Shown here piece after piece: positions 3,048 to 7,108 of a stretch of DNA of 37,847 bases. The notes beneath the pieces were generated by a model that searched no databases, was not told the origin of the DNA, and saw only the letters and a list, made by a program, of their open reading frames with translations. This DNA is from a virus, in IMG/VR virus record IMGVR_UViG_3300042558_001557, positions 1 through 37,847 of that record, one strand, 5' to 3'. The position numbers were made by a program, and so were the translations under genes. Each line of letters starts with the position of its first letter. Position 1 is the first letter of the stretch.

Positions 3048-3455
3048 TTAAAACGGGATGTCATCGTCCATATCGTCGAACCCACTAGCCGCTTTTGCTG
3101 CTGCTTGCCTGCGCGGCTCTGCCTGTTGCACAAGCGGGCTATTGCTCACGACCTCACGCTTGCCACCCTGCAAAGCTACGTCCTGAACACGAATCTCCAT
3201 TGCCTTAACCGCGGCGCCGTCCTTCTGATATTCGCGCTCTGTGACGGTGCCGGAGACGGTCACGGCTTGCCCTTTGGTGAGGTACGGCGCCAGCGATTCG
3301 GCACGCTTACCAAACAGCGAACAGCGCCACCAGATAGTGGGCCTTGATTGGCCTTGCGAATCAGCAACCGAGAATGATGCAACTCCGGTTCCGTCTGGCA
3401 TGTAACGTACTTCTGCGTCTTTGCCAAGTTGTCCTGCGATGGTGATGTTGTTCAT
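3048..3455 (-). CDS. ssb: Single-stranded DNA-binding protein (SSB), 135 aa
   Basis: This binds single-stranded DNA during phage replication and recombination. The OB-fold shows the usual strings: NNITIAGQLGKDAEVRY at the N-terminus, then GVASFSVAD, WWRCSLFGKRAESL, LTKGQAVTVSGT and a GAAVKAMEIRV strand. A linker of about 30 residues leads to the acidic tip DDMDDDIPF, the signature tail that recruits partner proteins. The start at 3455 was chosen because it overlaps the annealing-protein stop by ATGA and begins exactly at the conserved N-terminus; a longer frame to 3545 adds a basic stretch foreign to SSBs. Its coupling to the annealing protein suggests co-production in fixed ratio. Confidence 0.95.
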   Translation of the reverse strand: MNNITIAGQLGKDAEVRYMPDGTGVASFSVADSQGQSRPTIWWRCSLFGKRAESLAPYLTKGQAVTVSGTVTEREYQKDGAAVKAMEIRVQDVALQGGKREVVSNSPLVQQAEPRRQAAAKAASGFDDMDDDIPF

Positions 3456-4099
3456 GTTGCTGCTTTCTGTGTTAGTCGTTTGATGATTGGTGTGTAAGCC
3501 TCTGCCGGAACGTCTTTCAATGCTTTGCATTCGACGCCGACACACTTGCTAACCCATGCCATGAATGCTTCAACGTCACGTCCGGCGACAAGCGCGGCAA
3601 TCTCGCTCACTTGATCGTCTGTCAGAACGGGCGCTTCACGGCGGCGGGTTTCCTCTGCGGCCCATTCCACATACTTGGAGTCATCCCATTGGCCGCTGAA
3701 AATGTCGCCAGCAAACCCGGCCATGGAAAAACACTTGACCATTGCATCGGTGACTGACTTTTTCCCGGCGTCTTCATCAACCATCAATCCGCCCTTGCTG
3801 GTCATATAGGCTGCTTTTGTTCCGCCCATCTGGTCCCATGACTCGGATCGCTTTCCATCAAGCACATACCAGACGGAAACAACGGCAACATGGAGCACGT
3901 CTGTTTCTGAAATCCGTTCAAACCGTTCTGATTTGACAGTAATTCCCCAGCCAATACCGACAGGTCCAAACACCTCCGTTGCGCGTTGAATAATCCAGTA
4001 CGGCTTTGGGCTGTTACCCTTGTACTGCTTGCCGGTGATTGGCTTGACCGCTGCCGGGTCGGTTACCTTTACGCTGTTCCAAAGCTTCATGTTTTCCAT
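3452..4099 (-). CDS. Probable single-strand annealing protein (Rad52/ERF-like), 215 aa
   Basis: The likely role is phage homologous recombination by annealing complementary single strands. The N-terminal half carries YWIIQRATEVFGPVGIGWG (residues ~34-52), then beta strands ending in WDQMGGT, then the diagnostic K-SVTDAMVKCFSMAGFAGDIF segment and FSGQWDDSKYV. This order resembles Rad52-superfamily annealing proteins of phages; the assignment is from motif pattern only. The C-terminal third looks like a separate helical partner-binding domain. The gene directly precedes and overlaps ssb, the standard neighbourhood for annealing proteins. An AAGGAC site precedes the ATG at 4099. No 5'-3' exonuclease is seen next to it. 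Confidence 0.6.
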   Translation of the reverse strand: MENMKLWNSVKVTDPAAVKPITGKQYKGNSPKPYWIIQRATEVFGPVGIGWGITVKSERFERISETDVLHVAVVSVWYVLDGKRSESWDQMGGTKAAYMTSKGGLMVDEDAGKKSVTDAMVKCFSMAGFAGDIFSGQWDDSKYVEWAAEETRRREAPVLTDDQVSEIAALVAGRDVEAFMAWVSKCVGVECKALKDVPAEAYTPIIKRLTQKAAT

Positions 4100-5099: not shown

Positions 5100-5280
5100 C
5101 AATTACAGAGTGGTGCCAGTAGTGAATCTCTGGCCCGGTTTAACGTAACGACGGCCTGCATTTCACCGTACATCTAGCAGGACTTTCTACTTAATCCCCA
5201 ATCGCTTTTCAGCGTTACGGCGGGTTTGTCAAACAACGTCGCTGCACGATCACCACTCGCGCATTACCACTCTGTAATTG
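5100..5280. ncRNA. Candidate structured RNA domain closed by a 15-bp perfect helix
   Basis: CAATTACAGAGTGGT (5100-5114) is perfectly complementary to ACCACTCTGTAATTG (5266-5280). Inside, pairings nest without conflict: GCCAG/CTGGC (5115-5119 with 5130-5134), CCCG/CGGG (5134-5137 with 5221-5224, sharing one base), CGTAACG/CGTTACG (5144-5150 with 5213-5219) and CCTGC/GCAGG (5155-5159 with 5177-5181). Such nesting points to a folded RNA rather than protein-binding DNA. I do not recognise an Rfam family. Strand is unresolved. It could be a leader element of the leftward operon or a separate RNA. Confidence 0.5.
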
Positions 5281-5417: not shown

Positions 5418-5571
5418 CGCTGTCTGCTTTCGAGAACCACGGGGAAAAGCTTGTTAAGGAACCTGGTGCGCCGCGTCGATCCGGGGCTGCTCCGCTTTGT
5501 TTGCGGCATGTGTGGATTCTAACCCGGTTAGAAGTGCAGTTCAAACAAAATTAGAACGTGACAGCGAGTAG

Positions 5572-5604: not shown

Positions 5605-5612
5605 CTGGGTAC

Positions 5613-5640
5613 TTGCACAGTTCTGAAACCTGTGCATAAT
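5613..5640 (+). promoter_or_regulatory. Sigma70-type promoter, rightward, for the small RNA
   Basis: TTGCAC (5613-5618), a 16-base spacer, then CATAAT (5635-5640). Transcription would start near 5646. The -10 overlaps the reverse DnaA box at 5631-5639 and the promoter lies just downstream of operator copy A. Confidence 0.6.
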
Positions 5641-5645
5641 GTGGT

Positions 5646-5737
5646 CTGTCGCCGTAGGAAGCGATCCGACGAAGCCGTTTACTCATGCGTCTGCCCCTCA
5701 CGGGGTTCCTACCGGGCGCAGTAGTAAACGGCTTTTT
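5646..5737 (+). ncRNA. Candidate ~92-nt small RNA ending in an intrinsic terminator
   Basis: A promoter at 5613-5640 and a terminator-type hairpin at 5672-5737 define a short transcript with no room for a gene. The 5' end carries about 26 bases, GTCGCCGTAGGAAGCG among them, that are free of strong pairing and could be a target-binding region. I do not recognise the RNA. By analogy with lambda oop or P22 sar it could be antisense or regulatory, but no target was identified by eye. Confidence 0.5.
5672..5737 (+). terminator. Long-stem intrinsic terminator
   Basis: AAGCCGTTTACT (5672-5683) pairs perfectly with AGTAAACGGCTT (5723-5734). After a 2x2 internal loop, TGCG/CGCA extends the stem, and CCCC/GGGG forms an inner hairpin. 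A run of Ts at 5732-5737 completes the terminator in the rightward direction only. Confidence 0.75.
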
Positions 5738-5769
5738 TGTTTCCTAGGCGTCACGTCAGGGCGCGTGAG

Positions 5770-5959
5770 CTGGCGTTTTTTAGGTGGTTGAGCAGGGCGC
5801 CTTATGGAGGGCACCGCAAAGGCGGAAATTACGGGTTCGATTCCCGTCCTGCTGGGTTGGTTACCCAAAGGCATGGGCTTGTAAGCGTTGCGGCTTATAA
5901 GAACTGAACGCCTCGCATCAACCCGGGATGACCTCCGGGAGCCACCTAAAAAACGCTAG
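5770..5959 (+). ncRNA. Candidate structured RNA domain closed by a ~20-bp helix
   Basis: GCGTTTTTTAGGTGG (5773-5787) is perfectly complementary to CCACCTAAAAAACGC (5942-5956), and the helix extends to about 5770-5789 with 5940-5959. Inside are the tRNA-like element (5791-5853), CCCA/TGGG (5864-5877), CTTGTAAGC/GCTTATAAG (5878-5886 with 5893-5901, one G-U pair) and CCCGG/CCGGG (5922-5926 with 5935-5939). The + strand is favoured because the T-loop motif reads on that strand. Large phage RNAs of the GOLLD and ROOL kind share the style, but I cannot claim membership. Confidence 0.6.
5791..5853 (+). other. tRNA-like element without an anticodon loop
   Basis: AGCAGG (5791-5796) pairs with CCTGCT (5848-5853) as an acceptor-type stem. 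ACGGG-TTCGATT-CCCGT (5831-5847) is a textbook T arm with 7-base loop. A D-arm-like hairpin can form (GCC 5799-5801 with GGC 5810-5812, loop with GG). The position of the anticodon arm holds only CCGC-AAAG-GCGG (5814-5825), a 4-bp stem with a 4-base loop; alternatively CGCCTT/AAGGCG (5798-5803 with 5819-5824) forms. At 63 bases it is too short to be a decoding tRNA. The first base pair of a 7-bp acceptor (G-G) fails. Confidence 0.55.
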
Positions 5960-6192
5960 GTCTAAGCTAATGGGCCTGCATGGGCCGCACCCAAGATCAC
6001 CGGCACCGGTACACCCCCGGATAAGCGCCGTCTAGCCTGTCTGCGAGGGACTAGGTAAGCCAAGGGCGCAAGTGGTGAGACAAGCCCTTCGGTTAATGAA
6101 TCGCAGCCTCTTTGGATTGCTGAGTACGGGATAGCAGATAGCGCCCGTACCGGGCAGGGAAGAAAGCCTCAGCTTTCACCCTTGGGGTAACT
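5960..6192 (+). other. Gene-free block, right part: hairpin-rich leader
   Basis: No gene is seen. Local pairings include AAGGGC/GCCCTT (6062-6067 with 6084-6089), GTACGGG/CCCGTAC (6124-6130 with 6144-6150, perfect) and GAAAGC/GCTTTC (6162-6167 with 6172-6177, CTCA loop). The repeat CCCGGATAAGCGCC lies at 6016-6029. It leads directly into the 93-aa gene at 6193, so it may be its 5' leader or the 3' domain of the larger RNA. No internal promoter was recognised. Confidence 0.45.
6016..6029 (+). repeat. Direct repeat CCCGGATAAGCGCC, copy 2
   Basis: Same 14 bases and same orientation as 5404-5417, again followed by TGTCTGC (6038-6044). Confidence 0.7.
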
Positions 6193-6712: not shown

Positions 6713-7108
6713 CTATTCCTTTTCGGTCTTGGTCACGGGCATGGCCTGCTCAATTTGGGCATCGGTCGCGGCCTCTTTGACGAACGCCACCCACACCGCC
6801 CGGAATGTGGCTCGCTGCTTTTCTGTCAGCGCATCGAAGTCGGCGGCGAACTTCATCGCATCTGGCGATAGCGAATCCTCCCACAAGATTGCATCGGCGG
6901 CAACGCCGTACAGCTTGGAAATCTCCCTCAAGCGGTAGACGCCTGGGTCTGCTCGCCCCATCTCCCACGCTGAAACCGTAGCGTTACTCACGCCTAGGCG
7001 GTCGGCGACTTCCTGCTGATTCAGGCCCTTTCCCTCTCTAGCGGCCTTCATGCGAAGCCCCAATCCCTGCCGTGTCGGGTCGTTTCTGCGGTCGTCTTGG
7101 GTGGCCAT
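6713..7108 (-). CDS. XRE-family repressor (CI-like), 131 aa
   Basis: A lambda-repressor-type helix-turn-helix spans residues ~15-77 (LRMKAAREGKGLNQQEVADRL, split as helix 1-2, then GVSNATVSAWEMGRADPG as the recognition region). The C-terminal ~50 residues are helical. There is no LexA-type Ser/Lys self-cleavage domain, so induction by RecA cleavage is not expected. The gene points away from the Cro-like gene across a short control region with the candidate operator at 7122-7139, the classic immunity layout. No ribosome binding site is visible before the ATG at 7108, so translation may be leaderless or start is uncertain. It probably keeps lytic genes off. Confidence 0.85.
   Translation of the reverse strand: MATQDDRRNDPTRQGLGLRMKAAREGKGLNQQEVADRLGVSNATVSAWEMGRADPGVYRLREISKLYGVAADAILWEDSLSPDAMKFAADFDALTEKQRATFRAVWVAFVKEAATDAQIEQAMPVTKTEKE

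What the first reader, a model, noticed from the sequence alone, without database searches (positions are those of the whole stretch)
5100..5280. Nested RNA-like domain closed by a 15-bp perfect inverted repeat
Five pairings nest inside one another in 181 bases of gene-free DNA. A protein-binding palindrome or coding region would not show this. No known family came to mind.
Basis: partly seen in the sequence, partly recalled or inferred. Interest (0 to 1): 0.7.

Follow-up and report, generated by a model that had tools for sequence, protein, structure and literature searches.

The report
Phage RNA clamp beside tRNA genes
The inverted repeat closes a real RNA structure, two hairpins whose loops pair with each other around a variable stretch, and the same structure occurs, unannotated, in many unrelated bacterial viruses, usually beside their tRNA genes.

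Summary
A perfect 15-bp inverted repeat (5100-5114/5266-5280) closes a domain that folds better than shuffles. A syntenic relative (L003) has a different, perfectly paired closing helix but keeps two hairpin loops that can pair with each other. A covariance model from seven such elements, plus BLAST, led to 29 elements in Xanthomonadaceae, Enterobacteriaceae and Pseudomonas phages, including HK620, HK629 and P1. Covariation is strong: 23 of 27 pairs show two-sided changes (0 of 1000 shuffles match), and one pair of the loop-loop helix flips from G-C to C-G. Architecture: long variable helix P1, AA linker, hairpin P2, unconserved insert of 37-159 nt, 5-bp hairpin P3 directly on P1, and an L2-L3 kiss. 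In one phage the insert contains a tRNA-like sequence. Of the 29 elements, 17 lie within 180 nt of (or contain) a same-strand tRNA gene. No Rfam family matched it in the loci scanned. Best reading: a co-transcribed RNA clamp with a tRNA-like layout, holding variable cargo, in untranslated phage transcripts. The RNA structure is shown by comparison; its function is inferred.

The parts
5266..5280 (-). P1, 5' arm of the closing helix
   Evidence: Perfect inverted repeat; P1 covaries across homologues
5264..5265 (-). AA linker between P1 and P2
   Evidence: AA in all 29 elements compared
5243..5263 (-). P2 hairpin TGCGCGA-GTGGTGA-TCGTGCA; loop L2 at 5250-5256
   Evidence: Two-sided changes in its pairs
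5135..5242 (-). Variable insert J2/3, 108 nt; 37-159 nt and unrelated in sequence in most homologues
5115..5134 (-). P3 hairpin GCCAG-AGATTCACTA-CTGGC, joined to P1 without linker; loop at 5120-5129 pairs with L2
5100..5114 (-). P1, 3' arm of the closing helix
5412..5462 (-). Conserved upstream segment of the same untranslated region, 80% identical to L003 2467-2516
5516..5544 (-). Promoter-like site TTGAAC-17-TAGAAT overlapping the palindrome TTCTAACCCGGTTAGAA (5517-5533); candidate start of the transcript, inferred only
   Evidence: one site found where shuffles give 1.9 on average, so weak

Best explanation
A conserved structured RNA module on the minus strand, probably transcribed as part of the untranslated leader of the phage's leftward operon. 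Shown by comparison: a long sequence-variable helix P1, an AA linker, hairpin P2, an unconserved insert, a 5-bp hairpin P3 joined directly to P1, and a 5-7 bp helix between loops L2 and L3. Inferred: P3 stacks on P1 and the loop-loop helix locks P2 against P3, giving a compact clamp laid out like a tRNA (P1 = acceptor stem, AA = positions 8-9, P2 = D arm, P3 = T arm, L2-L3 = D-loop/T-loop contact) that holds a variable cargo where the anticodon arm would be. It is encoded among phage tRNAs, tmRNA and other stem-capped modules; the long P1 could let RNase III or tRNA-processing enzymes cut it out as a separate stable RNA. Most likely function: a stable RNA that engages host factors which handle tRNA-shaped RNAs, or that protects or displays its insert. 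Separate confidences: conserved RNA of this architecture about 0.95; separate clamp or scaffold about 0.45; action on tRNA-handling factors about 0.25. The figure given here is for the architecture plus its being a co-transcribed module of untranslated phage RNA, not for a molecular target.
For: Covariation of P1, P2, P3 and the loop-loop helix in 7 sequences (94.0% of cells paired, 20 of 32 pairs with two-sided change, 0/500 shuffles on every measure) and in 28 distinct rows with explicit registers (91.1% paired, 23 of 27 pairs, 0/1000). Loop pairs GGUGA/UCACY versus GCUGA/UCAGC; at least 5 contiguous loop-loop pairs possible in 26 of 29. A same-strand tRNA within 180 nt or inside in 17 of 29; tRNA-like insert in L087; tmRNA beside L003. 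Layout P1-AA-P2-insert-P3(5 bp)-P1 seen in the sequences.
Against: No transcript, processing or 3D data. L3 is not a canonical T loop and no tRNA model matches the element itself. Ten elements have no tRNA found in the stretch held and two more have none within 300 nt. Two copies (L161, L162) sit directly before protein genes outside any array. Three elements (L159, L160, PY54) keep only 3-4 contiguous loop-loop pairs. The kiss could be between molecules. Shuffle tests do not correct for relatedness, and element boundaries were chosen knowing the structure.
Confidence: 0.8

Rival explanations
1. A cis-acting leader element: the fold acts on RNA polymerase, Rho or ribosomes in its own transcript, protecting long untranslated phage RNA from termination or tuning the next gene, in the manner of HK022 put RNA but not as a member of that family.
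For: In HK620 it lies between the annotated late promoter/qut and terminator tQ; in HK629 upstream of the holin; in L161 and L162 just before ribosome-binding sites of different genes. In the window and L003 it lies in the untranslated region of the leftward block.
Against: No single position relative to promoter or gene start; often directly before or among tRNA genes, or after tRNAs (ZC03, P1). The long P1 and large variable insert are not needed for such a role.
Confidence: 0.25
2. A domain of a larger ornate RNA (GOLLD- or ROOL-like): the loops pair within or between molecules and the whole untranslated region of 1-1.4 kb is one RNA, possibly an assembly that holds tRNAs.
For: Untranslated regions of 1-1.4 kb with conserved upstream and downstream blocks in S72, Kintu and CUB19; long-range complementarities in the window. 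GOLLD and ROOL are encoded near tRNA islands, use kissing loops, and GOLLD linkers sometimes hold tRNAs (PMC12286853).
Against: No Rfam match to GOLLD or ROOL. The element occurs alone in short intergenic gaps (L161, L162, HK620) and is missing from Silvergun although the array blocks are there.
Confidence: 0.2
3. A passive spacer or processing element whose only role is to separate and help mature neighbouring tRNAs.
For: Often 7-28 nt upstream of a tRNA; P1 of 9 bp to over 20 bp could be an RNase III site.
Against: Conserved loop-loop pairing and hairpins are more than a cleavage stem needs; found without adjacent tRNAs in HK620, L161 and others.
Confidence: 0.2
4. A DNA palindrome (protein-binding or recombination site) or a chance repeat.
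For: None beyond the single-sequence view.
Against: Arms 151 nt apart, and compensatory changes in four helices across 29 elements.
Confidence: 0.01

Closest known systems
tRNA (RF00005) and tmRNA (RF01850, RF04321), as architecture
   Same: Closing stem, two-nucleotide linker, hairpin, variable part, 5-bp hairpin joined directly to the closing stem, contact between the two loops; usually encoded beside such genes.
   Different: No tRNA or tmRNA model match at the element, no T-loop sequence, loops joined by several base pairs, P1 often far longer than 7 bp, no anticodon arm.
GOLLD and ROOL RNAs (PMC12286853)
   Same: Structured phage RNAs near tRNA islands, kissing loops, an unconserved linker that can hold a tRNA.
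   Different: Far smaller (about 100-220 nt), different structure, no Rfam match.
Purine riboswitch aptamer, as fold (from memory)
   Same: P1 with two side-by-side hairpins whose loops kiss.
   Different: Junction not conserved and the insert is 37-159 nt, so there is no conserved ligand pocket.
HK022 put antiterminator RNA (from memory)
   Same: Structured RNA in phage operon leaders.
   Different: Sequence and layout differ from what I recall; antitermination was not tested.
AgvB/EcOnc and Pas sRNAs of lambdoid prophages (PMC4104026, PMC13192938)
   Same: Small RNAs encoded in the PR'/holin neighbourhood. A neighbouring module here contains CACAACA, the motif AgvB uses against GcvB.
   Different: Those are Hfq-associated short sRNAs (Pas end in an intrinsic terminator); this element is closed by a long helix. 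No direct sequence comparison was made.

Membership tests
tRNA (RF00005) | Match to the tRNA covariance model at the element | tested here: not met
   the only tRNA hit in the window is at 5790-5855, other strand. In L087 the hit is in the insert.
tRNA (RF00005) | T loop of the UUCRANY type and anticodon arm | tested here: not met
   L3 reads AGAUUCACYA or AGAUCAGCA; the place of the anticodon arm is an unconserved insert.
tmRNA (RF01850, RF04321) | Match to tmRNA models | tested here: not met
   the match in L003 is the neighbouring gene 1352-1628, not the element; none in the window.
GOLLD / ROOL | Match to the Rfam models | tested here: not met
GOLLD / ROOL | Homo-oligomer formed by intermolecular contacts | not testable with these tools
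   Needs biochemistry or cryo-EM.
YrlA (Y RNA-like) | Match to RF02553 at the element | tested here: not met
   One weak hit (25.1 bits, gathering 69) elsewhere, at 5813-5897 +.
Purine riboswitch | Conserved three-way junction that binds the ligand | tested here: not met
   J2/3 is 37-159 nt and unconserved, J3/1 is 0-1 nt.
HK022 put antiterminator RNA | Readthrough of terminators in cis | not testable with these tools
   Needs a reporter assay; the literature search found no held paper.
Hfq-dependent prophage sRNAs (AgvB, Pas) | Intrinsic terminator directly ending the RNA | tested here: not met
   No terminator-like site directly after the window element on its strand; the nearest is 5050-5023 with a weak T run. 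Feature from PMC13192938.
Hfq-dependent prophage sRNAs (AgvB, Pas) | Hfq binding | not testable with these tools
   Needs binding or crosslinking data.

The most novel reading that the evidence does not exclude
A widespread class of phage RNA cassettes: a tRNA-shaped, loop-locked clamp that carries interchangeable RNA cargo, sometimes tRNA-like, and is exchanged as stem-capped modules between phages of different families. It would be a general phage device for expressing and protecting small RNAs, or for mimicking tRNA towards host defence or processing factors.
Probability: 0.3. Interest if true: 0.88.

Novelty: new variant of a known kind. Interest (0 to 1): 0.72.

Why it matters
An RNA with clear covariation is carried by classic coliphages (HK620, HK629, P1) and by E. 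coli prophages (near-identical DNA in 115 of 5426 complete genomes), yet seems to have no Rfam family and almost no annotation. It would mean that the DNA before the holin gene in such phages, and the spacers of many phage tRNA arrays, hold functional RNA. Because laboratory phages carry it, the question of what these untranslated regions do becomes testable by mutation.

Tried and rejected
Rfam, gathering and permissive: only a tRNA-like hit on the other strand and weak chance hits. BLAST of the window region against phages and plasmids: nothing. Relatives of the neighbouring recombination protein (L084, L085): no element found. The two-loop pattern in viral contigs gave L087 as the one new true hit; the rest lack the stems. 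L115 (25 bits) and L180 (34 bits) look like coding sequence and were taken as chance. No hit in 200 Burkholderiales genomes and only that chance-like hit in 229 genomes of the class of a Pseudomonas; these scans scored few candidates per genome, so they are weak negatives. MAFFT misregisters full-length elements and partly the trimmed 29, so pair counts used trimmed segments or explicit per-sequence registers. A sequence elsewhere in the window that can pair with P2 (6066-6078) was noted, not pursued. AgvB/EcOnc and Pas papers were checked as possible earlier descriptions: different RNAs.

Full report
Observation. The two 15-nt arms at 5100-5114 and 5266-5280 are perfectly complementary, 151 nt apart. 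The 191-nt stretch folds better than 200 dinucleotide shuffles on either strand (z -4.4 plus, -4.9 minus). The window is a virus record with terminase, portal, scaffold and head genes, a repressor-like gene at 6713-7108 and a leftward block with exonuclease-like and SSB genes at 3048-4099. The element lies in an untranslated gap of that leftward block.

From one sequence to a family. The best complete terminase relative, L003, has the element in the same place. Its closing helix is GGCCATCAACTCAGGGG/CCCCTGAGTTGATGGCC, unrelated to the window's yet perfectly paired. Inside, two hairpins are conserved on the minus strand: TGCGCRA-GTGGTGA-TYGYGCA and GCCAG-AGATTCACTA-CTGGC. Their loops can pair over seven positions with one G-U pair, the last of them at the P3 closing base. 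BLAST of the L003 element found Stenotrophomonas phage S72, where the element ends a few bases before a cluster of seven tRNA genes and loop 3 reads UCACCAC, fully Watson-Crick with loop 2. From S72 came Xanthomonas phage Kintu, whose loops read GGCUGA and AUCAGCA: the pairing is kept by a G-C to C-G exchange. CUB19 and SOVA965 followed from the surrounding array, and L087 from a two-loop pattern.

Statistics. On seven trimmed sequences aligned by MAFFT, the named structure with the loop-loop helix has 94.0% standard pairs, 20 of 32 pairs with two-sided changes and a covariation score of 0.515 (shuffled mean 0.178, 0/500; slid structures at most 0.159). A covariance model from these seven scored nine further elements in loci fetched with array or hairpin patterns. 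BLAST of one of them (L161) opened the enterobacterial phages phiEt88, swi2, SopranoGao, KsaM-C1, HC6, GP-1 and BUCT610. BLAST of the SopranoGao element led to HK620, HK629, P1, T751, ZC03, PY54, FBPa19 and ep3. The model scores these 15 at 28-58 bits. Leaving out two near-duplicates (L153, L169) gives 29 elements. With explicit registers, 28 distinct rows show 91.1% paired cells over 27 pairs, 23 pairs with two-sided changes, and 96 two-sided cells against a shuffled mean of 27 (0/1000). Pairing falls off only in P1 beyond position 7, where helix length varies. Caveats: the rows are related, boundaries were chosen knowing the structure, the loop exchange may be only one or two events, and no tree-aware test was run.

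Strand. G-U pairs that would be C-A on the other strand occur in P1, P2 and the loop-loop helix, including those of the window and L003; over P1 positions 1-7, P2, P3 and the kiss I count about 11 G-U against 4 C-A cells from the table, which is modest support. The nearest tRNA genes lie on the strand of the element in every case within 320 nt. For the window this means the minus strand, the direction of the leftward genes. Transcription itself was not observed.

Anatomy. P1 has 6 to more than 20 bp. AA joins P1 to P2 (5-7 bp, loop of 6-7 nt). The insert has 37-159 nt, without conservation beyond a few pairs or trios of phages and without consistent extra stability. P3 has 5 bp and joins P1 directly or with one base. 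The order matches that of a tRNA with the anticodon part replaced by the insert. This is a likeness of layout, not membership: no tRNA model matches the element. In L087 a tRNA-like sequence (Rfam 39 bits) lies in the insert.

Context. Of 29 elements, 17 have a same-strand tRNA within 180 nt or inside the insert; in 15 it is downstream, several starting 7-15 nt after the model match. L003 has a tmRNA close by. In HK620 the element lies between the annotated late promoter and qut site and the terminator tQ, upstream of the holin; in HK629 between an HNH gene and the holin. DNA near-identical to the HK620 region occurs in 115 of 5426 complete E. coli genomes, 88 of them over most of its length, with no feature annotated in nearly all listed rows. 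L161 and L162 share a copy placed before different genes. Stem-capped modules seem to be exchanged: L003 and L136 share flanks and an outer stem but carry different interiors, and identical inserts occur in HK620, swi2 and SopranoGao.

Mechanism. Shown by comparison: an RNA fold under selection, modular, tied to untranslated phage RNA. Inferred: P3 stacks on P1, the loops kiss within one molecule, P1 is a processing site, the insert is cargo. The leading reading is a stable clamp of tRNA-like layout released from a polycistronic transcript. The main rivals are a cis-acting leader element and a domain of a larger GOLLD- or ROOL-like RNA; evidence for and against each is given in the rival section. 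For the window, a weak promoter-like site overlapping a palindrome (5516-5544) is a candidate start. In L003, TTACCG-N4-CGGTAA repeats occur both upstream of the array (2561) and beside the repressor-like gene (2968, 3002), which suggests repressor control there.

Known or new. No Rfam family matched the element in the window or in Kintu at permissive thresholds, nor in 20 further loci at gathering thresholds. Searches of the held open-access papers found GOLLD/ROOL (PMC12286853), AgvB/EcOnc (PMC4104026) and Pas sRNAs (PMC13192938), none of which is this RNA as far as the text shows. Subscription papers are not held, so an earlier description cannot be excluded. I rate it a new variant of a known kind: a new family among the structured phage RNAs of tRNA arrays and operon leaders.

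Noticed in passing
window 5767-5962 (+): A second stem-capped module: near-perfect arms of 21 nt, 154 nt apart, around a tRNA-like sequence (Rfam tRNA 33.6 bits at 5790-5855; not called by ARAGORN), on the opposite strand to the element.
   Followed up: partly
window 5612-5740 (+): TTGCAC-16-CATAAT promoter-like sequence followed by a hairpin (5672-5689/5717-5734) and a T run: possibly a short plus-strand RNA diverging from the element.
   Followed up: no
L163-L169, L170, L171, L173, L177, L179 (for example L169 2301-2422 and 2535-2622): Recurrent neighbouring module, roughly CACAACAGGTAAGAGCATTG..insert..AGTGCTCTTTCCGTTGTG, twice in BUCT610. Its 3' arm overlaps the P1 5' arm of the element, so the two helices could be mutually exclusive. 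CACAACA is the GcvB seed target used by AgvB (PMC4104026).
   Followed up: partly
L177 (KT232076, labelled phage lambda), about 1440-1600: The same neighbouring module, then a helix GTTGTGCTG/CAGCACAAC with a different interior, between the Q gene and the holin gene: perhaps a degenerate or swapped version of the element.
   Followed up: no
L003 1325-1629 (-), L136 2440-2744 (+): Phage-borne tmRNA gene with tag ANDSSYLKVA (Rfam beta_tmRNA in L003) in P22-like phages, next to the RNA array.
   Followed up: partly
L122 2550-2840, L083 5440-5740, L141 2480-2800, L142 3500-3910, L143 3360-3680: Strongly conserved untranslated block at the upstream end of these tRNA arrays (85% between Kintu and CUB19 or S72), apparently a further structured RNA; also present in Acinetobacter phage Silvergun, which lacks the element.
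   Followed up: partly
L087 7337-7532 (+): A stem-capped RNA with a T-arm-like hairpin (TTATTTGATGGT..GCTGGTTCGATTCCAGC..ACCATCAAATAA), not called by ARAGORN or Rfam.
   Followed up: no
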